34,052 nucleotides of DNA from Okeania sp. SIO2C9 (lineage in GTDB: Bacteria > Cyanobacteriota > Cyanobacteriia > Cyanobacteriales > Microcoleaceae): the NCBI RefSeq assembly GCF_010672455.1, contig NZ_JAAHGO010000020.1:1-34052 (forward strand). Direction: 5' to 3'. The notes beneath the pieces are model-generated. The model was not told the DNA's origin and searched no databases. It saw nothing but the letters and a program-made list of their open reading frames with translations. This document shows, piece after piece, positions 3 to 14,950 of the stretch. How positions within the stretch are numbered: position 1 is the stretch's first letter; every line of letters starts with the position of its first letter. Both the position numbers and the translations under genes were made by a program.

Positions 3-234
3 CCCCATCTCCCCACCTCCCCATCTCCCCATCTCCCCCTCTCCCCATCTCCCACTCTCCCAATCTCCCCATCTCCCCATCTCCCAATCTCCCCATCTCC
101 CCATCTCCCAATCTCCCAATCTCCCCATCTCCCCATCTCCCCATCTCCCAATCTCCCCATCTCCCCATCTCCCAATCTCCCCATCTCCCAATCTCCCAAT
201 CTCCCAATCTCCCAATCTCCCCATCTCCCCATCT
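3..234. repeat. 8-bp tandem repeat array, unit CCCCATCT/CCCAATCT
   Basis: About 29 copies of an 8-base unit, CCCCATCT, with point variants CCCAATCT, CCCCACCT, CCCCCTCT and CCCACTCT, without spacers. The complementary strand reads AGATGGGG repeatedly, giving long series of G4 tracts separated by four bases, which fits a G-quadruplex-forming pattern. The array ends abruptly at AATTACACC. Short tandemly repeated repetitive sequences of this kind are known in filamentous cyanobacteria. Confidence 0.95.
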
Positions 235-630: not shown

Positions 631-657
631 TAGACTTTTTCAACAAACCCTAGCTAG
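631..657 (-). repeat. Gene-end repeat element (GGTTTGTTGAAAAAGTC), copy at the NRPS1 stop
   Basis: The plus strand reads GACTTTTTCAACAAACCCTAGCTAG. Near-identical sequence abuts the 3' ends of the P450 (9105-9122) and the response regulator (26193-26218). Here it supplies the NRPS1 stop codon (640-642) and the last few codons. Confidence 0.8.
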
Positions 658-3600
658 ACAAAATTTAAGTTTTTCAGCTAATACCATTACGTGAGGTTCA
701 CCAAGCATGGTAGTATGGTTTCCAGGAACAACCTTAACCTCCACAGGTTTGCAAGAATACTGATTCCAACCCCAAGTTGGATCGGTAGGTATTTCACCAA
801 GCATTCCCAATTCATCTTGATAAACTTCGCTGGTGCGGAACAGGGTAATCCGACCTTGATAACCTCCTTGTGGGAGATAACTCATAAAAGCCAATTCGTC
901 AGCTTTAATCGTTTGGACAATCCCACGCACTCGTTCAATTCCTGAATTATATGGCAACAGATTGACGCTTTCCATCTGCTGTTTGAGATAATTTAATTGC
1001 GCTTCAGGAGTTAGAGGTTTGAGTGCTTCATAGAAAATGCCGAGATTTTTCGCAGATAACACTTCTATGATATGGGCAATATTGGTCAACCATCGAGTAT
1101 CATCCCAATCTAGTTGTTTTGGGGGGCTGCCAGGAAGTCGGGTAGGAAGGTCTAATAGGGCAAGTAGGGCAACTGTTTCTCCCTGTTTTTGTAGCTGTTG
1201 TGCCATTTCAAAAGCAACCAGAACCCCAAAGGAATGACCGCCAAGGAAGTACGGACCAGAAGGTTGAAGGGTTTGGATGGCTTGGAGATAGTAGGCAGCT
1301 ACCTCTTCAACACGACCAAAGGGTTCCGAAATCCCATCTAAACTGGGAGGTTGTAAGGCGTAAAAAGGTTGGTCATTTCCCAGATGACGGGCAAGTTGGT
1401 GGAAGTACACCACATTGCCACCGGAACCAGGCATACAAAAGAAAGGTGGGTGCTTTCCTTGGGGTTGAATGGCAACTAAAGGAGACCAAGACTGAGTATC
1501 AGTTTTTTGGCGCAGTAGAATGGCTAATTGTTCTACGGTAGCACCTTGGAAAAGGGCGGCTAAAGATAGATTTTTGCCAAATTGTTTCTCAATGTCAGCC
1601 ATGAGACGCACTGCTAACAGAGAATAACCACCCAAGTCAAAGAAGTTATCTCGGACTCCGATGGGGAAAACACCAAGAATCTCTGACCAAATTTGAGTTA
1701 GTTGTAATTCTAGGGAGTCGCGGGGGGCAATAAAACTGCTTTCACGAACTAAACTTGAAGCATCGGGGATAGGTAAACCACGACGGTTGACTTTACCATT
1801 AGGAGTCAGAGGTATTGATTCGAGAAGGACAAAAGCAGCAGGAATCATGTACTCGGGTAGCTTAGTCTTGAGGAAAGAACGCAAATCATCTATCGTAGTT
1901 TTTTCCTCATTAGTAGTTAAATAAGCAACTAGACGTTTGTCTCCTGGAATGTCTTCGCGAGCAATGACTACAGCTTCTCGCACCTGGGAATGTTGGGCAA
2001 GTACTGCTTCAATTTCTCCGAGTTCGATCCGGAAACCTCGAATTTTTACTTGATGATCGATACGTCCGAGATATTCAATATTTCCATCGGGTAAATAACG
2101 AGCTAAATCCCCTGTTTTATATAATTTTGACTTTTGATTGTTGAGTTTTGACTTATCAAAGGGGTTGGGAATGAACTTTTCCTCAGTCAGTTCTCGACGG
2201 TTGAGATAGCCTCGAGCTAATCCATCTCCCCCGATATGTAGTTCTCCTTGTATACCAATGGGAACAGGTTGCAATTGTTTATCTAAAATATAGACTTGGG
2301 TATTGCTAATTGGTCGTCCGATCGGAATAGTAGTTGCTCCTTGCCGTACATTCTCAACCAAATACCAAGATGAGAAAGTTGTGTTCTCAGCTGGTCCATA
2401 AACATGAAGTAATTTTTCAGGCGCTCCATGCTCAAGTACCTTTTTAACTGAGGTCGGATCAACTGTCTCGGCACCAAATAAAAGATATCTTAAGGATTTG
2501 AAGGCTTCTGGAACCAGTGCGGCCAATTGATTGAATAAAGCTGTTGTCAAAAAGAGTACGCTAACCTGGTATTTTCGGAGTAGGGCTACAAATTTTTCGG
2601 CTTCCAGCGCAATTTGCTGGGGAACCCCAATCAGTTGTGCTCCATGAAGAAGAGCGCCCCAAATTTCAAAGGTAGCAGCATCAAAAGAAGCATTCGAGGT
2701 TTGAGCCACTCGGTCTGAAGATGCTAAATTTATATAGTTAGTATTATTGACTAATCGGTTGATGCCCAAATGAGTCACAGCAACTCCCTTTGGTTTTCCA
2801 GTAGAACCTGATGTGTAAATTACATAAACTAAGTGATCCGGTTTTGTTTGGTTCACAGGGTTATCTTGACCTAATGATGCAATAACATCCCAATCAGAGT
2901 CTAACAAAATCAGCTTCCCAACACTTGAGGGAAGTTTCTCAACCCACTTAGATTGTGTTAACAAAACTGGCACCGAGGAATCTTCCAGCATATAGGCAAT
3001 ACGTTCAGTAGGATAATTAGGGTCTAATGGCACATAAGCTCCACCGGCTTTAAGAATCCCCAATAATCCCACCACCATCTCAACAGAACGTTCGACACAG
3101 ATGCCCACTAATACCTCTGGTGCAACCCCCAGAGTTTGTAAATAATGCGCCAGTTGATTAGCTTGACAATTTAACTCGTGATAAGTTAATTGTCGGTCTT
3201 CAAATACTACCGCCACTGCATCCGGTGTTCTTTCTACTTGTTCTTCAAACAACTGATGAATGCACTTATCCTGGGGATAGTCAACAGTCGTATTATTCCA
3301 TTCTACCAACAACTGATGGCGCTCACTTTCAGTCAACAAAGGTAACTCAGAAATGCTTTGGTTAGGATTGATAACAATTCCCTCTAGCAATGTATTCAAA
3401 TGCCCGCTCATTCGCTTAATTGTAGCGGCATCAAATAAATCAGTATTGTATTCAGTCAGAAGAACCATTCCCTCTGATTCTTCCTGTAAGAGATAGAAAG
3501 TGATGTCAAACTTAGAGGTCTTAGGATCTACCTCGAAGTAAAATGCCTTCCATCCTAACTTGTCTTCCGTTACTAGAGGTGGATCAATGGTAAAAGCTAC

Positions 3601-6600
3601 CTGAAATAGAGGATTTTTGTTGACTTGGTAATCGGGATGAAGAGCTTCTACCACCTTCTGGAATGGCACATCTTGATGGGAGTAAGCTGAGAAACAGACA
3701 TTCTGGACTCGCTTTAACAGTTCGCAGAAACTAGGGTTGCCACTGAGGTCACTACGCAAGACTAAAGTATTGAGAAAGTTGCCAATGATTCCGTCTAACT
3801 CCGGTTGATCCCGCTGGTCAATAACAGTACCCAGAACAATATCTTCCTGATTTGAATAGCGATAAAGCAAAACTTTGATTGCTGTTGCCAAGGTCACAAA
3901 TAAGGTAACATTTTCTTTGCGACTAAGAGTTTGGAGCTTTTCTATTAAGTCAAAGGGCAGTCGGTGACGAAGAAATGAACCGCTAAAAGTCGTTTGTGGA
4001 GTGCGAGGACGGTCAGTGGGAAGTTTTAATTGGGGTAAGTTTTCCAGTTGTTTCTGCCAGTAGGTAAGCTGATTGGAGAGAATTTCTCCCTGTAGACGTT
4101 GGCGTTGCCAAACAGCGAAATCAGCATACTGTATAGTTAATTCTGGCAGAGGTGAGGGTAAACCTTGAGAGAATGCCGTATAAATAATTTCTAATTCTTG
4201 TACTATTTTGATAAATGATTCACCATCTATAAAACTGTGATGAATAGCGAAGTAGAGCCGATAGTTGTCTGAAGTAAGCTGAATCAGAGTAGCTCGCAGC
4301 AAGGGGCTTCGGGTGAAGTCAAATCCTTGGCGAAGCTGTTCGGTGGCAATACGCACCGCTTCTGTTTCTCGTTTTGTTTCTGACCATTCTCGCAAATCGA
4401 CAATCGGTAAAGTAAATGCAGATGGTGGCTGAATTTCCTGGCAAGGTTGACCATTACAGCTATTTTCAGAAAGCCCCCTAAATCCCCCATAATTGGGGGA
4501 ATTTAACTCAATCCCCCCCCCAAGTTGGGGGGGGAGGGGGGCGAAATTTGCTGTAAGAAATCGATAGGTCGTCCGCAGAATTTCGTGGCGGCGGATGAGT
4601 TCCGTCAGACTTTCTTCCAAGGCAGGAATATTGATATCTCCACCTAGATGAATACTCAAGGTTTCGTTGTAAACTGGTTCTTCTGGGGTTAACTGGTTGA
4701 GAAACCACAGTTGTTCTTGGGCAAAGGATAAGGGAATTGTTTGCTCTCGTGAAATCGGTTGTAGGGGTGGTTCAATAGTTAATTCCTCTTCCTGAAGAAC
4801 CTCTTTGGCTAACTCAGCAACTGTGGGAAACTCAAATAAGCAATTCAGGGGTAATTCTACCCCGAAGCGTACGCGCACTAGCCCGATAATTTTGGTGGCT
4901 AACAAGGAATGTCCGCCTAATTCAATAAAGTTGTCATTGATTCCGATGGGAGAAACACCAAGAATCTCTGACCAGATTTGAGCTAGTTGCAGTTCTACCG
5001 AATCCCGGGGGGCAACAAAACTGGTTTCACGAATCAAACTTGAAGCATCAGGAATGGGTAAAGCCCGGCGATCGACTTTGCCGCTTGGTGTTAAGGGAAA
5101 AGCTTCCAGAATGATAAACGTTCCGGGCACCATGTAGTCTGGTAACTTTTCGGAAAGAAAGCGGCGCAGTTGACCCAAAGTCGGGATTTGCCCCTCATTT
5201 GGACAAACGTAGGCGACTAAGCGCTTTTCCCCTGGTTGGTCTTCTCGGACAATCACCGCAGTCTGCCGCAGGTCGGGGTGTTGAGCGAGTATTACTTCAA
5301 TTTCTCCAAGTTCGATGCGGAAACCCCGCACCTTGACCTGATTATCGATGCGACCGAGATATTCGATATTTCCATCCGGTAAATAACGAGCTAAATCACC
5401 AGTTTTATAGAGGCGAGAACCTGGTTTATTGCTAAACGGATTAAGGATAAACTTTTGCTCTGTCAAGTCAGGACGGTTGAGATAACCTAAGGCAAGGGAA
5501 ACTCCCCCGATGTACAACTCGCCGGTAATTCCCACAGCTACAGGTTGTGCGAATTGATCTAATAGGTAAATCTGAGTGTTAGCAATGGGACGACCAATAG
5601 GTGGTAGTGCTGACCAATTGTCAGTAGAACCGGTTAAGGTAAATGCTGTGACTACATGAGTTTCTGATGGTCCATATTGATTATGAAGAGAACAATCTTT
5701 TAGCTGAGAGAAAAAAGCGGCGATCGCCCTTGTTATTTGCAACTGTTCCCCTGCTGTTATTACTTCCCGCAAACTGCTGGGAATCAATCCCCTAGTTTGA
5801 GCGGTCTCTGCTAACTGCTGTAAGGCAACAAAAGGAAGAAAGAGTCTTTCTATTTGTTTTTCGCTTAATAAATGTAGTAAAGCAACAGGGTCTCGTCGCA
5901 CTTGTTCTGAGATTAAGACCAAGGTTCCACCCCCACACCAGGTTGAAAATATTTCCTGAAAGGAGACATCAAAGCTAATTGGTGCAAATTGCAGGGTTTT
6001 TGCTTTTGGTGAAACTGTTGTGTTTGACCGTTGCCACAAAATCAGATTGCTCAAGGCAAGGTGCTTCATTGCTACACCTTTAGGTTGACCCGTAGAACCG
6101 GAAGTGTAGATTACATAAGCCAAGTTTTCCTCACAAACACTACAGTTGGGATTTAAGTCAGTTTCTTGACTAACTAAATTCCAGTCAGTATCTAAACAAA
6201 TGATTTGCGCTCTTATTTCCGGTAATCCAGCTACCAAGTTTTTTTGAGTTAATAGTACTGAAGCTTGAGAGTTTTCCAGCATATAGGCAATGCGCTCAAT
6301 CGGATAAGTTGGGTCGAGAGGAACATAAGCACCACCTGCTTTTAGAATCCCCAATAATCCCACAACCATTTCAACAGAACGTTCTACACAAATTCCGACT
6401 AAAGTCTCTGGTTTAACACCCAATTGTTGCAAATAATGAGCTAATTGATTTGCCCGACTATTCAACTCCCGATAAGTTAATTGCTCCGACTCAAACACCA
6501 CCGCCACTGCATCCGGTGTTTTTTCTACCTGCTCGGAGAACAACTGATGAATACACTTATCCTTTGGATAGTCAACAGTTGTATTATTCCACTCAATTAA

Positions 6601-8061
6601 TAACTGATGACGCTCTTTGTCGGTTAACAGAAGTAATTCAGAAATGCTTATGTGGGGATTGGTAACGATTCCCTCTAGCAAGGTCTGAAAATGACCCACC
6701 ATCCGGTGTATTCTGTCAGCATCAAACAAATCTGTGCTATACTCAAGGTAACCAATAATTCCTTCCGGTCTGTCTTCTAGATTTAGAAATAAATCAAACT
6801 TTGACGTAGCGTTATCCACATCTTGCAGGCTGACAGTCCAGTCTAAATCAAAGGCGGTTTGTGGTGGTTCCATCGTACAAATCACCTGGAACAGAACGTT
6901 TTTACTTAGGTCGCGTTCAGGATGGAGTGTCTCCACAAGTTTTTGAAAGGGGATATCTTGATGAGCATAAGCTTCTAACAGGACTTTTCGCACCCGCTCG
7001 AGCAACTGTCGAAAACTGGGATTGCCCGAACAATCTGTCCGCAACACCAGCATATTCACAAAGTAGCCAATCAGGTTTTCAATTTCTGGGGAATGGCGAC
7101 CTGCACTTGCCGTACCAACCATCAAATCTTCCTGCCCTGTGTATCGATAGAGCAAGGTTTTGAAGGCTGTTAACAATGTCATAAATAGCGTTACTCCTTC
7201 CTGCTGACTCAAGGCTTTGAGTGCCCCACTCAGACTTTTAGACAAGGTTAACTTTTGCTTCGCACCTCGAAAACTCTGTACTGAAGGTCGGGAACGATCG
7301 CAGGGTAACTGAAGTATGGGCAGTTCGCCACTGAGTTTTTGTTTCCAATAGTCAAGTTGCTGGGACAACACTTCGCCCTGCATCCACTGTCGCTGCCACA
7401 CGGCAAAGTCTGCATATTGTAGGGGGAGTTCGGGAAGGGGCGATCGCTGACCTGATGAAAATGCTTGGTAGAGGGTTGCCAATTCTTTCAGAAAAATACC
7501 ATACAGGGAAACTCCGTCGATTGCGATATGATGGAAGATAAGAAATAACCTATACTCTTGGTCTGTTAGCTGTATCAAGATGGCTCGCATGAGTAGCTCA
7601 GAAGTAGTCAGGTCGAAGAGTTTTTGAGCTTCTAAAGTTGCTTGTTGTCGCGCTTCAGTTTCCCGTTTGTTTTTCGGAAGTTCCCGCAGGTCGATCCTTG
7701 TCAACTTAAAATCAGGCGGTGGAGCAATAATTTGAACGGGTTGTCCGCTCACAATTATAAACTTAGTTCGTAAAGCTTCGTGACGGCGGATAATTTCCTT
7801 TAGGCTTTCTGAGAGTGCGATCGCATCTAATTGACCCCGAATATGAACTGTTGCGGGCTCGTTATAGAAAGGAACATTGGGATTGAGTTGTGCGAGCAAC
7901 CACAGTTGTTCCTGAAAATAGGAAAACGGTATTGGTCCAGCATCGGTTCGGCGAGTTATCGTTTTGGCCGACTCTTGACCCAAGCCTTTTTTCTGGAGCA
8001 GGAGTTTGAGGAGTTTTTGTTTGTCTGTGGTAAAAAAACGTTCTGACGAAGACTTATCCAT
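640..8061 (-). CDS. NRPS1: two-module nonribosomal peptide synthetase, C-A-PCP-C-A-PCP-TE
   Basis: A 2473-residue cytosolic assembly-line enzyme that adds the last two residues of a peptide and releases it. Domain order: C1 (about 44-480, HHxxxDG at 177-183), A1 (500-1000), PCP1 (LGGHSL, phosphopantetheine Ser1052), C2 (1108-1580, HHSFIDG at 1274-1280), A2 (1600-2095), PCP2 (LGGYSL, Ser2147) and a type I thioesterase (GHSFG with Ser2277, probable Asp2304 and His2449). Read against GrsA, the A1 pocket code is DVQFIAQVVK, one residue from the proline signature DVQ(F/L)IAHVVK, and A2 is DAFFLGVTFK, typical of Ile/Val. No epimerase or methyltransferase domain is present. The N-terminal KLLKLLLQKKGL helix could dock to NRPS2. 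C2 carries an in-frame insertion of about 28 residues (near 1172-1200) encoded by a G/C-rich palindromic repeat. The last residues (ARVC) are encoded by a dispersed repeat. The ATG at 8061 has only a weak distant AGGA upstream. Confidence 0.95.
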   Translation of the reverse strand: MDKSSSERFFTTDKQKLLKLLLQKKGLGQESAKTITRRTDAGPIPFSYFQEQLWLLAQLNPNVPFYNEPATVHIRGQLDAIALSESLKEIIRRHEALRTKFIIVSGQPVQIIAPPPDFKLTRIDLRELPKNKRETEARQQATLEAQKLFDLTTSELLMRAILIQLTDQEYRLFLIFHHIAIDGVSLYGIFLKELATLYQAFSSGQRSPLPELPLQYADFAVWQRQWMQGEVLSQQLDYWKQKLSGELPILQLPCDRSRPSVQSFRGAKQKLTLSKSLSGALKALSQQEGVTLFMTLLTAFKTLLYRYTGQEDLMVGTASAGRHSPEIENLIGYFVNMLVLRTDCSGNPSFRQLLERVRKVLLEAYAHQDIPFQKLVETLHPERDLSKNVLFQVICTMEPPQTAFDLDWTVSLQDVDNATSKFDLFLNLEDRPEGIIGYLEYSTDLFDADRIHRMVGHFQTLLEGIVTNPHISISELLLLTDKERHQLLIEWNNTTVDYPKDKCIHQLFSEQVEKTPDAVAVVFESEQLTYRELNSRANQLAHYLQQLGVKPETLVGICVERSVEMVVGLLGILKAGGAYVPLDPTYPIERIAYMLENSQASVLLTQKNLVAGLPEIRAQIICLDTDWNLVSQETDLNPNCSVCEENLAYVIYTSGSTGQPKGVAMKHLALSNLILWQRSNTTVSPKAKTLQFAPISFDVSFQEIFSTWCGGGTLVLISEQVRRDPVALLHLLSEKQIERLFLPFVALQQLAETAQTRGLIPSSLREVITAGEQLQITRAIAAFFSQLKDCSLHNQYGPSETHVVTAFTLTGSTDNWSALPPIGRPIANTQIYLLDQFAQPVAVGITGELYIGGVSLALGYLNRPDLTEQKFILNPFSNKPGSRLYKTGDLARYLPDGNIEYLGRIDNQVKVRGFRIELGEIEVILAQHPDLRQTAVIVREDQPGEKRLVAYVCPNEGQIPTLGQLRRFLSEKLPDYMVPGTFIILEAFPLTPSGKVDRRALPIPDASSLIRETSFVAPRDSVELQLAQIWSEILGVSPIGINDNFIELGGHSLLATKIIGLVRVRFGVELPLNCLFEFPTVAELAKEVLQEEELTIEPPLQPISREQTIPLSFAQEQLWFLNQLTPEEPVYNETLSIHLGGDINIPALEESLTELIRRHEILRTTYRFLTANFAPLPPQLGGGIELNSPNYGGFRGLSENSCNGQPCQEIQPPSAFTLPIVDLREWSETKRETEAVRIATEQLRQGFDFTRSPLLRATLIQLTSDNYRLYFAIHHSFIDGESFIKIVQELEIIYTAFSQGLPSPLPELTIQYADFAVWQRQRLQGEILSNQLTYWQKQLENLPQLKLPTDRPRTPQTTFSGSFLRHRLPFDLIEKLQTLSRKENVTLFVTLATAIKVLLYRYSNQEDIVLGTVIDQRDQPELDGIIGNFLNTLVLRSDLSGNPSFCELLKRVQNVCFSAYSHQDVPFQKVVEALHPDYQVNKNPLFQVAFTIDPPLVTEDKLGWKAFYFEVDPKTSKFDITFYLLQEESEGMVLLTEYNTDLFDAATIKRMSGHLNTLLEGIVINPNQSISELPLLTESERHQLLVEWNNTTVDYPQDKCIHQLFEEQVERTPDAVAVVFEDRQLTYHELNCQANQLAHYLQTLGVAPEVLVGICVERSVEMVVGLLGILKAGGAYVPLDPNYPTERIAYMLEDSSVPVLLTQSKWVEKLPSSVGKLILLDSDWDVIASLGQDNPVNQTKPDHLVYVIYTSGSTGKPKGVAVTHLGINRLVNNTNYINLASSDRVAQTSNASFDAATFEIWGALLHGAQLIGVPQQIALEAEKFVALLRKYQVSVLFLTTALFNQLAALVPEAFKSLRYLLFGAETVDPTSVKKVLEHGAPEKLLHVYGPAENTTFSSWYLVENVRQGATTIPIGRPISNTQVYILDKQLQPVPIGIQGELHIGGDGLARGYLNRRELTEEKFIPNPFDKSKLNNQKSKLYKTGDLARYLPDGNIEYLGRIDHQVKIRGFRIELGEIEAVLAQHSQVREAVVIAREDIPGDKRLVAYLTTNEEKTTIDDLRSFLKTKLPEYMIPAAFVLLESIPLTPNGKVNRRGLPIPDASSLVRESSFIAPRDSLELQLTQIWSEILGVFPIGVRDNFFDLGGYSLLAVRLMADIEKQFGKNLSLAALFQGATVEQLAILLRQKTDTQSWSPLVAIQPQGKHPPFFCMPGSGGNVVYFHQLARHLGNDQPFYALQPPSLDGISEPFGRVEEVAAYYLQAIQTLQPSGPYFLGGHSFGVLVAFEMAQQLQKQGETVALLALLDLPTRLPGSPPKQLDWDDTRWLTNIAHIIEVLSAKNLGIFYEALKPLTPEAQLNYLKQQMESVNLLPYNSGIERVRGIVQTIKADELAFMSYLPQGGYQGRITLFRTSEVYQDELGMLGEIPTDPTWGWNQYSCKPVEVKVVPGNHTTMLGEPHVMVLAEKLKFCLARVC
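4454..4556. repeat. Palindromic G/C-rich repeat inserted in frame in the NRPS1 C2 domain
   Basis: Two adjacent hairpins, CCCCC-ATAATT-GGGGG (about 4484-4499) and a stem of eight or more C against G around AAGTT (about 4513-4534), lie inside the coding region. The outer ends TTACAGC (4454-4460) and GCTGTAA (4550-4556) form an inverted pair. Aligning C2 with C1 puts the extra residues in the loop between HExLRTxY and the (N/S)GQP strand, so about 28 residues (Pro/Gly-rich) are added without breaking the frame. Similar C/G-block hairpins are common dispersed repeats in cyanobacterial genomes (from memory). Confidence 0.85.
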
Positions 8062-8086
8062 TTTTTTGACAGTTCCTGATTTTTGT

Positions 8087-8142
8087 AGTTAGCGTTTCGA
8101 TCAAGTTACTTTGATATCATGCTCCGATTGACGAAGACTTAT
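8087..8142 (-). pseudogene. Duplicated fragments: last codons of P450 plus first codons of NRPS1
   Basis: Positions 8087-8127 match 9121-9161, the true P450 3' end, with 2 mismatches in 41 bases. On the minus strand they read EHDIKVT-stop-SKR-stop, against EHDIKVTLSKR-stop in the gene. The next bases, 8129-8142, repeat GACGAAGACTTAT, which is the start of NRPS1 (codons for DKSSS, 8045-8057). It looks like the scar of a duplication that pushed the P450 about 1 kb away from NRPS1. In the inferred ancestor the P450 stop lay about 27 bases before the NRPS1 ATG. Confidence 0.75.
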
Positions 8143-8189
8143 AGAACCCCTAAGCGTATCTTCATAAATATTAAATTTTTCTTTCTAGC

Positions 8190-8266
<77 letters not shown>

Positions 8267-8647
8267 GAAGAGGGAAGATGTGGGGAGAAATAATACAAAA
8301 AATTCAACACTCCTTTTCAGATTTTTCCTCACTCATTGATGCGCGAAAAGACTTGGCTACCATAATTATATAGCTATCAAATGGGTTCTATATAAAATCC
8401 GGTTATAGAGTAATCGCACTCATTATATCATGTTCGGATGATCACTTATAATAAAGCCAGAATCATTACAGTAGAAGTCTTCAAATTTGAACCCGAAATT
8501 GCGATCGCCAACTACCTCTATGTTCTGACGATCGCTTATAACTGAACAGCCCTAGTTTGAGGCCACCAATGGAAACAAGTTATATCATGTCCCGATCAGA
8601 GCGCTTCGCAAAAAACTTTCTCTTCATTTATAGCTTAAAATTCCCTC

Positions 8648-8689
8648 CTCATAACTCATTACTCATAACTCATTACTCATAACTCATTA
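8648..8689. repeat. 14-bp tandem repeat (CTCATAACTCATTA)3
   Basis: Three perfect copies of a 14-base unit, itself made of two related heptamers (CTCATAA, CTCATTA). Confidence 0.95.
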
Positions 8690-8884
8690 CTCCTCCATTT
8701 TTATTTATAACTATTCAACCGAACATGATATTACTTCCTCTTGATAAAGATGTTCTATTCCTGATTTTTGTAGTTAGGGCTTGCTTATGGAAGCTAAAAG
8801 TCAGGATAGCTAAGGTAATGGAGCTTTTTATATTCAGTTTATCTCCTTAATTATGGGCTAGTTTTGCCTTACAGCGCTTTTCAA

Positions 8885-8960
8885 ATTAATGAACCACATC
8901 TTCACATTTCAAATCTTGTAGGGACGTTCCATGGAACGTCCCTACTGTGGTTTACCCACA
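8885..8960 (-). repeat. Palindrome-bearing dispersed repeat, copy A
   Basis: The core at 8918-8945 is a perfect 28-base palindrome with left arm GTAGGGACGTTCCA. Flanks also match copy B at 14364-14435 in reverse orientation (AAACCACA on one side, ATGTGG(T/C)TCATT on the other), so the conserved unit is about 70 bp. The two copies flank the P450-NRPS2 block as inverted repeats. It is probably a small noncoding mobile element; transcribed, it would form a strong hairpin between P450 and NRPS1. Confidence 0.85.
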
Positions 8961-9104
8961 TGAAAACCGCTGTAAAATACTGAAATTTTTGGCTGAAATT
9001 CAAGAAAATTTTTTCACATAAAATGGCCGAAACCGTTGCCTGTTCCCCTCATCTGATGGTCCCCGCGTCTGGTGTGTCTCCCTGTCCTACCCTCACCAAG
9101 CAAT

Positions 9105-9122
9105 TTTTTCAGCAAACCCTAG
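9105..9122 (-). repeat. Gene-end repeat element at the P450 stop
   Basis: The plus strand reads TTTTCAGCAAACCCTAG immediately before the P450 stop codon complement (9123-9125). It matches elements at 631-657 and 26193-26218, each at the 3' end of a gene. Confidence 0.75.
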
Positions 9123-10481
9123 TTAGCGTTTCGATAGAGTTACTTTGATATCATGCTCCGACCATAAGGTAAACCTATCAACAGGAACAATCGGGTGTTG
9201 GGGCACCAATTGGAAGCTAAACTCTCTTAACAACATCACCAGAATTACTTTTACAGAGAGCAACGCCAAAGCCATTCCCGAGCAAGAGCGAGGCCCAAAT
9301 CCAAAGGGAATGTAGGCTAATTCATGGATGTTTTTGAGATTTGACTCTGAGAAACGCTCGGGATCGAATTTTTCTGGATTTGGCCAGTATTTGGGATTTT
9401 TATGAACGGAATAAATTGGGTATAATATAGTAGTTTTAGCTGGAATCACATAACCTCCGAGTTCCATATCTTGCTGTATTTCCCGAGCTGCATAGGGAGC
9501 AGGAGAGTATTTTCGCATTGATTCTTTCAAAACCATAGAAAAATAGTCTAATTTGTTGATATCGTCATAAACTAGCTCGCGATCGCTCTCAATGGCATCA
9601 TCAATTTCCTGACAAACTCTCATAGTAATATCTGGATGTTGGGACAGCAGATATAGAACCCATGATATTGTTATCCCTGTCGTATGGAAACCAGCCAAAA
9701 GCAATCCTATAACTCCCATGTGTATTTCTTCTGGAGGAACCTGATTTTCAATTAGGGCGTTTAAGATATCGTTACATTCCGGCTTTTCATTTTCGTTCCG
9801 TTCTGCTACTCTTTTCTGAATAATCTGCTCCACTGTATCATGCAAAATTGATAGAGATATATTGAGCTGTTTCTGTCTTTCTTCAAGGGACAATACACAG
9901 GGCAATTGGTATTGCTCGTTAATAAACTCAGTTAAAACATTTTTAAATGACTCAGTCAACCGAGTCCGCTCGGTCGCAGTTAATTGATAACCAAAAGCTA
10001 CACTTGCAATAATATTCAGCGTCTGTTTTGTTAAATCTTTCTGTAATTCAACGATTGTTTGTTCTTGGGCAGCCAGAGACCACTTTTGAATCAGCAATTT
10101 TGTTTGGCTGATAATTGTGTTAAAACTTGATTTTAACACAACATCATGCCCTAATGCAGGAATAATAATTTTGCGTCTTTCTTTAGCTTTTTCCGCCGGA
10201 ATAACCTGCCAATTATCTGGTCCGAGCAAAGGTTCTAAAAACTTAAATAATTCTTTAGGCCGATCCCCAACCTTCTGGGTTTTTTTCAGGATTTCTGGAT
10301 CGTTAATTGAAACAACTAAAGTTGAATCTGAAAGCCAAAACCTAGCAACATCCCCATAAGTTTCATGCAACAGTAGCTGAAAATTGTGCAATCCACCAGC
10401 CCGCGCAATATCGTTTAGGTTATGCTGTTCCGAAGGATGTTCCGGTGGCCCTGGTATTAAATTGCCTACTTTTTTTGACAT
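9123..10481 (-). CDS. Cytochrome P450, NRPS tailoring oxygenase
   Basis: A 452-residue soluble bacterial-type P450, probably hydroxylating the peptide or an amino acid precursor of the flanking NRPS pathway. Numbering from the ATG at 10481, the marks are the I-helix AGFHTT (263-268, oxygen activation), the K-helix ExxR (Glu320/Arg323), FDPERF, and the heme loop FGFGPRSCSG with the thiolate Cys400. No membrane anchor is seen. A longer reading starts at a TTG at 10508, but its extra nine codons lie inside an IS200/IS605-like right-end hairpin, so I prefer the ATG. No well-spaced ribosome site is seen: GGGAG sits only 1 base before the ATG. It lies between the two NRPS genes on the same strand, as tailoring P450s often do. 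The substrate cannot be read from sequence. Confidence 0.93.
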   Translation of the reverse strand: MSKKVGNLIPGPPEHPSEQHNLNDIARAGGLHNFQLLLHETYGDVARFWLSDSTLVVSINDPEILKKTQKVGDRPKELFKFLEPLLGPDNWQVIPAEKAKERRKIIIPALGHDVVLKSSFNTIISQTKLLIQKWSLAAQEQTIVELQKDLTKQTLNIIASVAFGYQLTATERTRLTESFKNVLTEFINEQYQLPCVLSLEERQKQLNISLSILHDTVEQIIQKRVAERNENEKPECNDILNALIENQVPPEEIHMGVIGLLLAGFHTTGITISWVLYLLSQHPDITMRVCQEIDDAIESDRELVYDDINKLDYFSMVLKESMRKYSPAPYAAREIQQDMELGGYVIPAKTTILYPIYSVHKNPKYWPNPEKFDPERFSESNLKNIHELAYIPFGFGPRSCSGMALALLSVKVILVMLLREFSFQLVPQHPIVPVDRFTLWSEHDIKVTLSKR

Positions 10482-10715
10482 ACTCCCGACGTTGCCCTTA
10501 CGGGACAACGCGGGATTCTTCAGTCTGGGAAACCCTGACCGCTGTTTAGACAGAGGTGATGTCCTCCCCCTGTGTTGGACCTTACAATAACAAAATGTAC
10601 CTAGCTTGTCAAGGGCATATGAACGTTTAGCTTATGAAGGTATCCGAATCTTGGCCCTGGCTTGACCATACGACGCTAAAGGTGCGGGAGAGCGCGGGAC
10701 TTCCCGCCAGGGAAG
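10482..10715 (-). mobile_element. IS200/IS605-like remnant upstream of P450
   Basis: Reading on the minus strand, the segment next to the P450 ATG is GAAGAATCCCGCGTTG, a TCCCGTAAGGG core, then CAACGTCGGGAGTATGTCAA. This imperfect stem-loop resembles right ends of cyanobacterial IS200/IS605 (tnpB-type) elements. A second small hairpin, GCGGGA-AG-TCCCGC (about 10691-10704), could be the left end. The reading TEESRVV just before the hairpin looks like a degraded TnpB tail. No transposase remains, so this would be a deletion derivative of about 235 bp. The family assignment is from memory of such ends. Confidence 0.5.
10584..10612 (-). promoter_or_regulatory. Sigma70-type promoter in the IS remnant, facing P450
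   Basis: On the minus strand a perfect -35 box TTGACA (10612-10607) is separated by exactly 17 bases from a -10 box TATTGT (10589-10584, 4 of 6 to consensus). Transcription would start near 10577, about 95 bases before the P450 ATG. If active, it would express P450, and possibly NRPS1, independently of NRPS2. Confidence 0.5.
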
Positions 10716-10815
10716 TTAAATAATTATTGTCCATCATTAATGTCTCCTGTTTGTGTTACTTGTGAATCTTGTGAATATTTACTGAAAAAACTTATCGCTG
10801 AAAATTAAGGTGATT

Positions 10816-13800
10816 TTACGAATTTTCGTTCATCTCAGCTAGCATGGCAGCCACTTCTTCGGGAGATAGCCGATCAATTGCTTGGAAAGTCCTGGCAATT
10901 TCATCAATGACTTCCTGACCTCCTCCACTTTCTGCCATTGCTTCCACCAGTCCACATACTGTGGGATTTTGAAACAGTTTCATTAGAGGAAATTCAAAAT
11001 CAAAAACTTGGCGAAGTTGACTGAAAATCCCTGTCGCATTCAGAGAATTTCCTCCCAAAGTGAAGAAGTTATCGTTGATACCTATTTTCTCAACACCAAG
11101 TACCTCAGACCACATTTGAGCCACCACTTCCTCGGCGGGGGATCGCGGTGCAACAAAAGCATTACTCAGTTCTGATCGGGTGAACTCGGGGATCGGGAGA
11201 GCCTTTCGGTCTACTTTTCCATTCGGATTCAACGGCAGGGCATCAAGGAGTACAAAAGCAGCCGGAATCATATAATCTGGCAAGTGTTTATAGATAAAAT
11301 GCCGTAGTGAGCTATCGGTAACGGTTTGCTCTTGGTAGGGAACGACGTAGGCAATTAGACGTTTTTCGTCAGCTTTTTCCCCTTGCACAATTGCGATCGC
11401 TTGACTGACCAGGGGATGTTTGCTCAAAACGGCTTCAATTTCTCCGAGTTCGACCCGGAAACCCCGAATTTTAACTTGATGGTCGATCCGTCCTAAAAAT
11501 TCGATATTCCCATCTGGTAGATAACGAGTTAAATCCCCTGTTTTGTAGAGACGAGCATCTGATAATTTGCTAAATGGATCGGGGATAAATTTTTTGGCGG
11601 TCAGATCCGGACGTCCTAAATAGCATCGAGCCAAGTTAGCACCGCCAATATAAAGTTCGCCGTGGACACCTACTGGTACAGGGGTCAGGTTGGGGTCGAG
11701 GATATACATTTGGGTATTAGCAATGGGTTTGCCTAGGGGTGGATAAAAAGACCAAACCTCTGGTTTTCCAGTAAAAGTAAAAGCCGTAACCACATGGGTT
11801 TCTGACGGGCCATAATGATTATGCAAAGAGCATCCTTTCAGACGCTTAAATAGTTCCACGATCGGTTGAGTGACTTGCAACTGTTCGCCAGTTGTAATAA
11901 TTTCCTTGAGGTTTTGAAACAGATGCTCTTGCTGTCTGTATCTCTCAGCCCACTGCTGCAAGACCACAACGGGTAATATTACTTTCTGGATGGGATTATC
12001 AGCAACAAAATAAAGTAATTTATCGAGATCCTTACGCAAACTCTCGGAAATTAAATATAGGGTTCCACCGGAAGACCAGGCAGCAAATATTTCGTGAAAA
12101 CTTGCATCAAAACTTAGGGAGGCGAACTGGAGAACTCCAACTCCTTGAAGTAAAGTATCCAAATGCCACTGGATCAGATTGCTCAATGCTCCATGAGACA
12201 AAGCGGTGCCTTTGGGGCGACCCGTTGAACCGGAAGTATAGATGACATACAGCAGATTTTCTGCCTGCACTTGAGTTTGTGGATTAATGTCCGGTTGTTG
12301 AGCAATTTCTTGCCACTGGGAGTCTAGGTAAACGATTTGAGCCTTGAGGTCATCAAATATGGTTTGTAATCGTTTTTGCGTCAAAATTACCGGCGCTTGA
12401 GTATCTTCAATCATGTAAACCAACCGCTCTTGAGGATAGGTTGGATCTAGCGGAACATAAGCCCCACCAGCTTTAAGAATGCCCAATACTCCCACAACCA
12501 TCTCCAGGGAACGTTCCACACATATTCCTACCAAAACTTCTGGTCCGACTCCCTTCAATTGCAAATAATGTGCTAATTGATTCGCCCGACAATTTAAATC
12601 ATGATAGGTTAATTGCTCCGACTCTAACACCACCGCCACTGCATCCGGTGTTTTTTCTACCTGCTCTTCAAACAACTGATGAATACACTTATCCTTTGGA
12701 TAGTCAACAGTCGTATTATTCCACTCAATTAATAACTGATGACGTTCTGATTCACTCAACAACGGCAATTTAAAAATCGGCGTTTCTGGATTAGCAACAA
12801 TTCCCTCTAACAACGTCAGATAATGCCTCGCCATCCGCTCTATAGTTTCAGATTTAAATAAATCACCATTATAATTCCATCGAACATTTAACTCATTACC
12901 CACTTCAATCATTTCTACACAGAGGTCATAAGGAGTGCCATGTTGTTGTTCCAACAAATAAGGTTCAATTTGAAGTAATCCCTCTTGAAACTCTGTCTCA
13001 TACCATCCTAATTTTCGCCAATTAAACATCACAGAAGAAACCAGACCATGACGGAAATTACTTTTGAGTTTCAACTCCTTGACTAATTGACTCCAGGGAT
13101 AATTATAAGCTTCATGTTTCAGCGCTTCATCAACCGTCTGAGCGACTTGCATCAGCAAGTCTTTAAAAGTCGTATTACCCTCTAAATTCCCTCGCACAAC
13201 AACTAAACTTGCCAAATTGCCCGCTACATCTTTAAACTCTTTTTTACCCCCTCGATTTTCTGTGGGAATATTCACAATAATATCTTCCTGATTTGTGTAG
13301 CGATATAACAGCACATAAAAGGCACTCAAGGCAATTTTTAACAGATTAATACTATCACATTGTAGTTGTTTTAGACGAGATATCAATTCTTCATTAAGCT
13401 TAAATTCATAAGATTCAAACTGATAAGTCACCACACTGGGGCGTGGTAGATCGGTTGGTAAATCTAAAATTTGCAACTCACCCGCTAATTGTTTTTCCCA
13501 ATATTGCCAAAGTTTTTCTCCCCTTGGTGAGTTCAGCATTTGTGATTCCCAATTGACAAAATCGGTATAAGCTAAAGGTTCTTTAACTGGAATACCCGCA
13601 TATAATTGTTGGAATTCTTTGAAAAATAAATCTTTGCTAAAACTATCACTAGCAATCTGGTGAATCGTAAACATTTGAACCCATTCTGTTGCGGAACGCT
13701 GAAACAAATATAATCGGATAATGGGGTCTTTTTCTAAATCATAGATAACATCTACACAGGCTAAAATTTCTGGCTTTAAGCGTTCTTCACTCCAATTTTT

Positions 13801-14103
13801 AGCATCAATCACCTGCATGGGAACATTCATCGTCGGATGAATAATTTGCACAGGTTCGCCCTCTTTGTCCGTTCCATAAGTGGTTCGTAAAATAGCATGG
13901 CGTTCTACGATTTTTTGCCATGTTGCTTTCCAGGTTTCTATGTCTAATGGTGAATTAATTTTTACTGCATTATACTCGTTGTAAATGATATTTTCAGGGG
14001 CAATTTGGTGAATAAACCATAACCCTTTCTGCCCCTCTGACATAGGATAAATATAACTAATTTCTGAATTATTAATTAAATCTTTTTTTTTGAACATAAT
14101 CAT
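10816..14103 (-). CDS. NRPS2: single-module nonribosomal peptide synthetase, C*-A-PCP
   Basis: A protein of about 1095 residues and the probable first module, since it lies first in transcription order and lacks a TE. The C domain begins at MSEGQKGLWF. Its HHxxxDG motif reads HQIASDS, so the second, catalytic His is Gln and Gly is Ser; condensation activity is doubtful. The A domain is complete (YTSGSTGRPKG, FDASFHEIF, NHYGPSETHVV, YKTGDL, NGKVDRK) with pocket code DAHIITHVVK, which I cannot assign. The PCP has LGGNSL with the carrier Ser. The tail LSPEEVAAMLAEM may be a docking helix for NRPS1. The frame is open back to a GTG at 14217. I chose ATG 14103 (or 14097) because similarity to the fossil copy at 14651-14761 starts about there; no clear ribosome site exists for any start. 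A 308-bp gap separates it from P450. Confidence 0.93.
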   Translation of the reverse strand: MIMFKKKDLINNSEISYIYPMSEGQKGLWFIHQIAPENIIYNEYNAVKINSPLDIETWKATWQKIVERHAILRTTYGTDKEGEPVQIIHPTMNVPMQVIDAKNWSEERLKPEILACVDVIYDLEKDPIIRLYLFQRSATEWVQMFTIHQIASDSFSKDLFFKEFQQLYAGIPVKEPLAYTDFVNWESQMLNSPRGEKLWQYWEKQLAGELQILDLPTDLPRPSVVTYQFESYEFKLNEELISRLKQLQCDSINLLKIALSAFYVLLYRYTNQEDIIVNIPTENRGGKKEFKDVAGNLASLVVVRGNLEGNTTFKDLLMQVAQTVDEALKHEAYNYPWSQLVKELKLKSNFRHGLVSSVMFNWRKLGWYETEFQEGLLQIEPYLLEQQHGTPYDLCVEMIEVGNELNVRWNYNGDLFKSETIERMARHYLTLLEGIVANPETPIFKLPLLSESERHQLLIEWNNTTVDYPKDKCIHQLFEEQVEKTPDAVAVVLESEQLTYHDLNCRANQLAHYLQLKGVGPEVLVGICVERSLEMVVGVLGILKAGGAYVPLDPTYPQERLVYMIEDTQAPVILTQKRLQTIFDDLKAQIVYLDSQWQEIAQQPDINPQTQVQAENLLYVIYTSGSTGRPKGTALSHGALSNLIQWHLDTLLQGVGVLQFASLSFDASFHEIFAAWSSGGTLYLISESLRKDLDKLLYFVADNPIQKVILPVVVLQQWAERYRQQEHLFQNLKEIITTGEQLQVTQPIVELFKRLKGCSLHNHYGPSETHVVTAFTFTGKPEVWSFYPPLGKPIANTQMYILDPNLTPVPVGVHGELYIGGANLARCYLGRPDLTAKKFIPDPFSKLSDARLYKTGDLTRYLPDGNIEFLGRIDHQVKIRGFRVELGEIEAVLSKHPLVSQAIAIVQGEKADEKRLIAYVVPYQEQTVTDSSLRHFIYKHLPDYMIPAAFVLLDALPLNPNGKVDRKALPIPEFTRSELSNAFVAPRSPAEEVVAQMWSEVLGVEKIGINDNFFTLGGNSLNATGIFSQLRQVFDFEFPLMKLFQNPTVCGLVEAMAESGGGQEVIDEIARTFQAIDRLSPEEVAAMLAEMNENS

Positions 14104-14363
14104 TCTGGTATTTTGGCACTCAGAAGTCAGGATATCGAGAAATAGAATAGGGGTAAAAGGTAGAAAAATGCCCCCATATTCACCATCTCCCAATATTTTA
14201 TAGCAATGAATGCTCACATATTTACATACTATTATTGTCTTTAAATGTAGTAAAAAGCTCTACATAGTAAGTATCTAATACAAACCCGTTTCTATACTTA
14301 CCAGATTTAATTTCATTCGTTTTTATTGCTGAAAGCTGACCGCTAATAGCTGAATGCTTACTT

Positions 14364-14436: not shown

Positions 14437-14761
14437 CTGGAGTTTAGACTAAATAGTTGAAGATATAATCAATAAAAAGATTGGAAAAATATGATGCACG
14501 GCTAAGTAAAGCCGATAATCTGTTTCTCCAAGCTGAATCAGGGATCGGAACTGGAGCTTAGACTAAATAGTTGAAAATATAATCAAGAAAAAGATGGAAA
14601 AATATGATGCACGGCTAAGTAAAGCCGATAATCTGTTTCTCCAAGCTGAATCAGATAGGGGCAATTTGGTGGATAAACCATAACCATTTTTGCCCCTCTG
14701 ACATAGAATAAACAGAATTGATTTCTGGATTATAGATTAAATCATTAGTTTTTTTTGTCAA
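14437..14761 (-). pseudogene. Fossil NRPS condensation domain with duplicated HH segment
   Basis: On the minus strand, 14761-14651 reads LTKKTNDLIYNPEINSVYS followed by MSEGQKWLWFIHQIAP and a stop. This parallels the NRPS2 N-terminus (MFKKKDLINNSEISYIYP, MSEGQKGLWFIHQIAP). The next 104 bases (14654-14551) read LIQLGETDYRLYLAVHHIF, the region around a C-domain HHxxxDG motif, then break. That block is repeated almost identically at 14541-14437. The middle of the domain is deleted and stops occur in all copies. The fossil keeps HH where the live NRPS2 has HQ, so it derives from a C domain with intact catalytic residues. Confidence 0.8.
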
Positions 14762-14950
14762 GATAATTTATTATTTTATTACTAAATCCGGTTATTAAAG
14801 GATGCTTGCCCCATCCCCAAATTCTATGTAAAGCAAGACTTAAACAAACATCCAGAGGAAGGAGATGAATAGTGGAGCTACAAAAAATTGTCAATTATAT
14901 CTAACTGGAGTCTCAGTTGCAGTATTGTTTAATTACTATCCATAATTCTT

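What the first reader, a model, noticed from the sequence alone, without database searches (positions are those of the whole stretch)
640..14103. Three-module NRPS-P450 locus predicted to make an X-(Pro-like)-(Ile/Val) tripeptide
Seen: domain order C-A-PCP / P450 / C-A-PCP-C-A-PCP-TE, all on one strand. Pocket residues read against GrsA positions give DAHIITHVVK, DVQFIAQVVK and DAFFLGVTFK. Known: DVQ(F/L)IAHVVK is proline and DAFFLGxTFK-type codes are branched aliphatic. Inference: colinear synthesis, oxidation by the P450, and TE release as a linear or cyclic small peptide. I do not recognise a characterised cyanobacterial pathway with this exact layout.
Basis: partly seen in the sequence, partly recalled or inferred. 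Interest (0 to 1): 0.7.

Follow-up and report, generated by a model that had tools for sequence, protein, structure and literature searches.

The report
Patchwork three-module cyanobacterial peptide synthetase cluster
A cyanobacterium carries a small enzyme assembly line, pieced together by recombination, that most likely joins a proline-like amino acid, proline and isoleucine with the help of an unusual oxidising enzyme; it is an uncharacterised but not exotic natural-product gene cluster.

Summary
On the - strand lie NRPS1 (C-A-PCP), a P450 and NRPS2 (C-A-PCP-C-A-PCP-TE), and the three pocket codes read as stated. Residue 2 as Pro-like and residue 3 as Ile are well supported. Four corrections follow. 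(1) The first C domain reads HQIASDS instead of HHxxxDG; four close relatives (two Moorena, Okeania, own paralogue) lack the same His, so C1 is probably non-catalytic and residue 1 is loaded directly. (2) A1 falls with aeruginosin Choi-type A domains, not proline ones, but AerD was not found in this genome; a substituted proline is likelier. (3) Synteny places contig C292 beyond position 1, with two more TE-terminated NRPS genes; Okeania SIO3I5 has one dimodular NRPS gene at this site. (4) The P450 belongs to a small clade with two Streptomyces megaplasmid relatives (37% identity) that have His where the I-helix acid normally sits. The best model is a linear or cyclic (oxidised Pro-analogue)-Pro-Ile tripeptide, NRPS1 handing over to NRPS2 through docking ends like those of aeruginosin-type synthetases. 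This is a new variant of a known kind, of moderate to low interest.

The parts
10816..14103 (-). NRPS1 gene: C1(degenerate)-A1-PCP1-docking tail, 1095 aa from ATG at 14103 (longer GTG start at 14217 possible)
12730..14052 (-). C1 domain; motif HQIASDS at 13642-13662 replaces HHxxxDG; 90.5% nt identity to own paralogue gene b over 12425-14100
11215..12672 (-). A1 adenylation domain, code DAHIITHVV; clade of G107 DAHIVTHVV and AerG/Choi-type A domains
10819..11127 (-). PCP1 (LGGNSLNAT at 11032-11058) and C-terminal tail ..AIDRLSPEEVAAMLAEMNENS resembling AerG and G107 tails
9123..10508 (-). Cytochrome P450; heme motif FGFGPRSCSG (9276-9305), ESMR (9513-9524), I-helix AGFHTT (9678-9695) with His at the usual acid position
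640..8061 (-). NRPS2 gene: docking head-C2-A2-PCP2-C3-A3-PCP3-TE, 2473 aa
6598..7932 (-). C2 domain (HHIAIDG at 7513-7533), preceded by head ..TTDKQKLLKLLLQKKG
5059..6537 (-). A2 adenylation domain, code DVQFIAQVV, proline-type clade
4804..4989 (-). PCP2 (LGGHSLLAT at 4894-4920)
3307..4746 (-). C3 domain (HHSFIDG at 4222-4242), split by an in-frame insert as in paralogue gene a
1792..3249 (-). A3 adenylation domain, code DAFFLGVTF = Ile
1537..1730 (-). PCP3 (limits approximate; LGGYSLLAV at 1609-1635)
688..1446 (-). Type I thioesterase (GHSFG 1225-1239; GNHTTML 703-723)
3..234 (.). 8-bp tandem repeat CCCCATCT x29 at the contig end; same repeat in same orientation at the end of contig C292
14437..14800 (.). 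Debris of further NRPS copies: remnant of a second C1 gene start (14657-14800) and a 113-bp tandem duplication, part of which matches NRPS coding sequence of relatives

Best explanation
NRPS1 and NRPS2 form a three-module assembly line. A1 of NRPS1 loads a proline-like imino acid (probably a substituted proline) directly onto PCP1; C1 is a non-catalytic remnant kept for structure. NRPS1 hands over through its C-terminal tail to the N-terminal docking helix of NRPS2, where C2 couples residue 1 to proline (A2), C3 couples that to isoleucine (A3), and the thioesterase releases a linear or cyclic tripeptide. The P450 most likely oxidises the first residue, free or bound to PCP1. The set arose by recombination: C1, the A2-C3 body and the TE come from a family of small TE-terminated NRPSs at this chromosomal site, A1-PCP1-tail resembles a Choi-type (AerG-like) module, and the P450 was acquired from elsewhere. 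Shown by computation: domains, motifs, codes, clades, homology segments. Inferred: substrates, docking, P450 target, release form.
For: Domains; codes. Among 35 A domains A1 lies in a 9-row clade with Choi-type domains (100/99) and A2 in a 9-row proline-type clade (98/89). Nearest solved structures of the A1 and A2 pocket regions are TycB and GrsB A domains (their Pro specificity is recalled). DAFFLGVTFK = Ile in print. The NRPS1 tail resembles the tails of AerG (L118) and of the G107 module, and later proteins in those loci have heads like that of NRPS2. In G107 a DAHIVTHVV module is followed by a PhyH-type oxygenase and then a docking-head NRPS, the layout of window NRPS1 / P450 / NRPS2. C1 lacks the second His in 5 of 5 family members yet stays in frame at mean dN/dS 0.36, against 0.22-0.25 for TE, A2-type and C3-type domains. 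Sliding identity shows the chimera: 0.57-1.00 to gene b up to aa 560, then 0.17-0.75.
Against: A 1061-bp repeat-rich gap separates the P450 from NRPS2 and 307 bp lie between NRPS1 and the P450, so co-transcription is not shown. No P450 match (E <= 1e-5) occurs in 14 fetched stretches from the related small-NRPS loci and the empty sites, so its link to this product rests on position. Heads like that of NRPS2 are common: many C2 matches in other genomes align from residue 10-20 of NRPS2, so the docking argument is not specific. In L118 an SDR-like gene lies between AerG and the next NRPS. The higher dN/dS of C1 could partly reflect its lower dS. No paper in the library holds DAHIITHV or DAHIVTHV as a string. 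NRPS debris upstream shows that the locus also decays.
Confidence: 0.58

Rival explanations
1. NRPS2 alone makes the product (Pro-Ile dipeptide or its diketopiperazine), as the dimodular relatives are expected to make dipeptides; NRPS1 and the P450 are idle or serve another pathway.
For: The complete close relatives are dimodular TE-terminated enzymes; gene a, the nearest relative of the NRPS2 body, starts directly at its A domain.
Against: NRPS2 carries an added intact C2 (HHIAIDG) and a docking head that the dimodular relatives lack, which makes sense only with an upstream partner; NRPS1 has a fitting tail.
Confidence: 0.2
2. C1 is a starter condensation domain that N-acylates residue 1, so the product is an acylated tripeptide.
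For: C1 sits at the N-terminus of the first module, where starter C domains sit; its more distant relatives (18 of 18 loci, 37-46% identity) keep HH.
Against: The second His is Gln in 5 of 5 family members; no separate acyl-ligase or acyl-carrier gene among the 10 window proteins scanned.
Confidence: 0.1
3. The window is part of one larger assembly line with genes a and b on contig C292, giving a longer peptide.
For: Synteny and the shared end repeat place C292 next to position 1.
Against: NRPS2, gene a and gene b each end in their own thioesterase, and genes a and b lack the docking head of NRPS2.
Confidence: 0.05

Closest known systems
Dimodular C-A-PCP-C-A-PCP-TE synthetases of Okeania sp. 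SIO3I5 (NZ_JAAHHT010000131.1) and Moorena sp. SIO3H5 (NZ_JAAHHS010000034.1), uncharacterised
   Same: Same degenerate C1 (80-81% identity), A2-type first A domain, similar TE; the Okeania copy sits at the same chromosomal site
   Different: One gene, two modules, second residue Ser-like or Gly-like by code, no P450 match, no split subunits
Aeruginosin AerG and the NRPS that comes after it
   Same: A1 groups with Choi-type A domains; similar C-terminal tail and a similar head on the later NRPS
   Different: No AerD match in this genome; pocket DAHIITHVV rather than DVHICAFLVK; C1 only 29% identical to the AerG C domain of L118; TE release rather than a reductase domain
Unnamed cluster G107:C421 with a DAHIVTHVV module and a PhyH oxygenase
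   Same: Nearest A1 relative (63%) and an oxygenase gene directly after the module
   Different: The oxygenase is of the PhyH family (a leucine hydroxylase and EctD among its nearest solved structures), not a P450; the preceding NRPS looks by eye like one ending in an epimerase module
Cytochrome P450s on megaplasmids of Streptomyces clavuligerus and Streptomyces sp. SAT1
   Same: 37% identity and the same His in the I-helix motif
   Different: No NRPS gene annotated within 12 kb in either record

Membership tests
Colinear type I NRPS assembly line | C-A-PCP modules ending in TE, with A, PCP and TE motifs | tested here: met
Colinear type I NRPS assembly line | HHxxxDG in every condensation domain | tested here: not met
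   C2 and C3 intact; C1 has HQIASDS
Colinear type I NRPS assembly line | Subunit docking of NRPS1 to NRPS2 | not testable with these tools
   sequence resemblance of tail and head only
Proline A domain (A2) | Grouping with proline-type A domains | tested here: met
   9-row clade, 98/89
Proline A domain (A2) | Code DVQ(F/L)IAHVVK | tested here: inconclusive
   DVQFIAQVV: eight of nine positions read agree, Q for H at 322; a same-genus relative has H
Isoleucine A domain (A3) | Code DAFFLGVTFK | tested here: met
   nine of nine positions read agree; published for Ile
Aeruginosin pathway | Choi biosynthesis gene aerD in the genome | tested here: not met
   no match at E <= 0.001 in G000; of 10 genomes searched 2 match, the two aer-type control genomes
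Aeruginosin pathway | AerG Choi code DVHICAFLVK | tested here: not met
   A1 is DAHIITHVV; clade shared, pocket different
Cytochrome P450 | Heme Cys loop and ExxR | tested here: met
   FGFGPRSCSG and ESMR
Cytochrome P450 | Acid-alcohol pair in the I-helix (AGx[DE]T[TS]) | tested here: not met
   AGFHTT; 20 of 21 cyanobacterial relatives have AGHETT, one GGFDAV; His in both Streptomyces relatives

The most novel reading that the evidence does not exclude
An unrecognised P450 clade with His in place of the I-helix acid oxidises a carrier-bound proline analogue here by a proton-delivery route that does not use the usual carboxylate, and the catalytically dead C1 is kept as a platform that recruits partners to the loading module.
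Probability: 0.12. Interest if true: 0.6.

Novelty: new variant of a known kind. Interest (0 to 1): 0.36.

Why it matters
It is an uncharacterised small NRPS-P450 cluster with fairly firm predictions for residues 2 and 3, so a targeted mass-spectrometry search is easy. It also shows a chromosomal site where dimodular NRPSs seem to have been turned into a split three-module line by module import, with near relatives preserved at the same site, and it points to a P450 clade with an unusual active-site residue. It does not change the general picture of NRPS evolution, since such mixing is already documented in cyanobacteria (PMC12184294, abstract and section 13 read).

Tried and rejected
P450 relatives by genome-contig scan: 12 pattern matches, none a relative. 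P450 in 195 genomes of the order: none but the own at E <= 1e-60, 171 of 195 at E <= 1e-25; in 388 genomes 4 at E <= 1e-52 including the own, best other identity 32% (these searches score only 4 to 8 candidates per genome). The neighbourhoods of the three others were fetched: one lies near an NRPS with sulfotransferase-like and acylase-like genes between, the other two show no NRPS C or A domain in 20 kb, so no shared pathway was seen. Considered and rejected: C1 as an X-type P450-recruiting domain, because 79-90% identical C1 copies occur in loci without a P450 match; Choi as residue 1, because AerD has no match. Pocket strings DVQFIAQV, DAHIITHV, DAHIVTHV and four DVH variants gave no paper; papers that print codes one letter per cell, as PMC3765200 does, would be missed. 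Searches for a P450-proline-tripeptide pathway in cyanobacteria, small Okeania/Moorena NRPSs, inactive first C domains and P450s without the acid gave listings in which I recognised no matching system by title or abstract start; of those papers only PMC12184294 was opened. A search on 4-methylproline genes was seen as a listing only. No tRNA and no Rfam match at gathering scores in the window. The end repeat alone does not prove the C292 join: a 34-base piece of it occurs at 26 places on 14 contigs; the join rests mainly on gene order.

Recalled or read by eye: position 278 was placed with a recalled GrsA alignment, which fits the published Thr and Ile codes. Names of aer-like genes in L117/L118 come from gene order, Pfam hits and passages of PMC10143770 and PMC3765200. 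Labels amidase, monophosphatase, DnaK, TnpB, SDR, cupin, sulfotransferase, acylase, GNAT and ATP-grasp for flanking genes were read from sequence by eye. Ser-like and Gly-like codes of relatives rest on recall and were partly read by hand, because the automatic read-out had gaps there. The head of the later NRPS in L118 is quoted; one search printed it in a wrong frame.

Full report
What is there. On the minus strand lie NRPS1 (10816-14103 from its ATG), a P450 (9123-10508) and NRPS2 (640-8061). Pfam gives C-A-PCP, p450 and C-A-PCP-C-A-PCP-TE; the three PCP serine motifs are present. On the other side lie a TrkA-type channel, thiL, gap2, murC, murB and gpi genes, so the cluster is bounded upstream by housekeeping genes.

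Residues 2 and 3. A2 (DVQFIAQVV) lies in a proline-type clade (98/89 among 35 A domains); its pocket region is nearest to GrsB and TycB A domains among solved structures (their proline specificity is recalled); an 84%-identical domain in the same genus (G305) reads DVQFIAHVV. A3 (DAFFLGVTF) matches the code published for Ile in cyanopeptolin and aeruginosin-type synthetases (passages of PMC2533009, PMC13122637, PMC3765200).

Residue 1. A1 (DAHIITHVV) is not in the proline clade. It groups at 100/99 with a module of genome G107 (DAHIVTHVV, 63% identity) and seven DVH-type A domains, two of which, the only two whose neighbourhoods I opened, lie beside aerD-E-F-like genes (L117, L118). AerG pockets are described as proline-like and take Choi (passages of PMC10143770 and PMC3765200). 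AerD has no match in this genome, while 2 of 10 genomes searched match, the two controls. A substituted proline is therefore likelier than Choi. In G107 the DAHIVTHVV module is followed by a PhyH-type oxygenase (a leucine hydroxylase and EctD among its nearest solved structures) and then by an NRPS with a docking head; in the window the P450 holds that place. This is the main hint that the P450 acts on residue 1, and it is only a hint.

The first C domain. C1 reads HQIASDS; so do the own paralogue gene b, Okeania SIO3I5 and Moorena SIO3H5, and Moorena SS36440bin_2 reads HQMASDS: 5 of 5 lack the second His. More distant relatives (18 of 18 loci, 37-46% identity) keep HH. C1 remains in frame with mean dN/dS 0.362 (10 pairs) against 0.252 for TE, 0.219 for A2-type and 0.221 for C3-type domains (15 pairs each). 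I read this as a non-catalytic domain kept under weaker constraint; lower dS in C1 may contribute to the difference.

The array. In G250 and G323 (same genus) the channel gene is followed, without NRPS matches, by an amidase-like and a monophosphatase-like gene; homologues of both lie on own contig C292. C292 ends in the same CCCCATCT repeat, in the same orientation, as the window start, although that repeat is dispersed (26 places on 14 contigs). C292 thus most likely continues the genome beyond position 1 and brings gene a (A-PCP-C-A-PCP-TE) and gene b (C1-A-PCP-C-A-PCP-TE). Of six stretches fetched downstream of the channel gene in relatives, one (G305, 8.4 kb) has an NRPS, a gene-a homologue at 89-97% nt over its main blocks, and five have no NRPS match (G250 6.8 kb, G323 20 kb, G297 8.1 kb, G329 3.9 kb with a different gene order, G153 20 kb). 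Okeania SIO3I5 has one dimodular C1-type gene at the site. Segments: NRPS1 12425-14100 is 90.5% nt identical to gene b; NRPS2 2941-6593 is 84% to gene a; the NRPS2 TE region is 88.6% to gene b and 89.6% to gene a. Upstream of NRPS1, 14437-14800 holds debris of more copies.

Docking. The NRPS1 tail (..AIDRLSPEEVAAMLAEM) resembles those of AerG in L118 (..EISRLSPEEVQALLSQS) and of the G107 module (..AIDKLSPEKVQLMLEEL); later NRPSs in those loci begin ..DKQKLLKLLLQKKG.. and ..KHDLLKLMLEKK.., and NRPS2 begins ..DKQKLLKLLLQKKG... The dimodular relatives lack this head. This supports NRPS1 handing over to NRPS2, but such heads are common in cyanobacterial NRPSs, so it is not specific proof.

The P450. 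Heme loop and ExxR are present; the I-helix reads AGFHTT, while 20 of 21 cyanobacterial relatives read AGHETT and one GGFDAV. The best relatives seen are megaplasmid P450s of Streptomyces clavuligerus and Streptomyces sp. SAT1 (37%), both with His at that place; of 102 matching plasmid records 40 were listed, the rest of that list at about 32% or less. The three form a 96/93 clade, with the warning that long branches meet. Neither record shows an annotated NRPS gene within 12 kb. Chromosomes of other phyla were not searched beyond the close-match scan, so the clade may be larger.

Against the model: the intergenic gaps are repeat-rich, co-transcription is not shown, related loci have no P450 match, and no substrate is tested. 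An NRPS2-only dipeptide is the main rival (0.2); the intact C2 and docking head speak against it.

Noticed in passing
window 3-234; C292 end (L043): Dispersed 8-bp tandem repeat CCCCATCT; a 34-base piece of it occurs at 26 places on 14 contigs, at least four of them within about 150 bases of a contig end.
   Followed up: partly
window 8062-9122: The gap between P450 and NRPS2 holds dispersed repeats matching C292 24617-24844 (88%) and 584-855 (96%), plus short tandem repeats; looks like mobile-element debris.
   Followed up: partly
L041 4204-4611: Truncated Asp/Glu/hydantoin racemase gene directly downstream of paralogue gene b on C292.
   Followed up: partly
L043 436-1453: TnpB-like genes directly upstream of paralogue gene a on C292, which itself lacks an N-terminal C domain.
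   Followed up: no
L100 8752-20000: Cluster with NRPS, sulfotransferase-like, acylase-like and P450 genes; its P450 I-helix reads GGFDAV, without the usual T-T pair.
   Followed up: no
L044 3896-6171: GNAT-like and ATP-grasp-like genes upstream of the Moorena SS36440bin_2 C1-type NRPS; may belong to its pathway.
   Followed up: no
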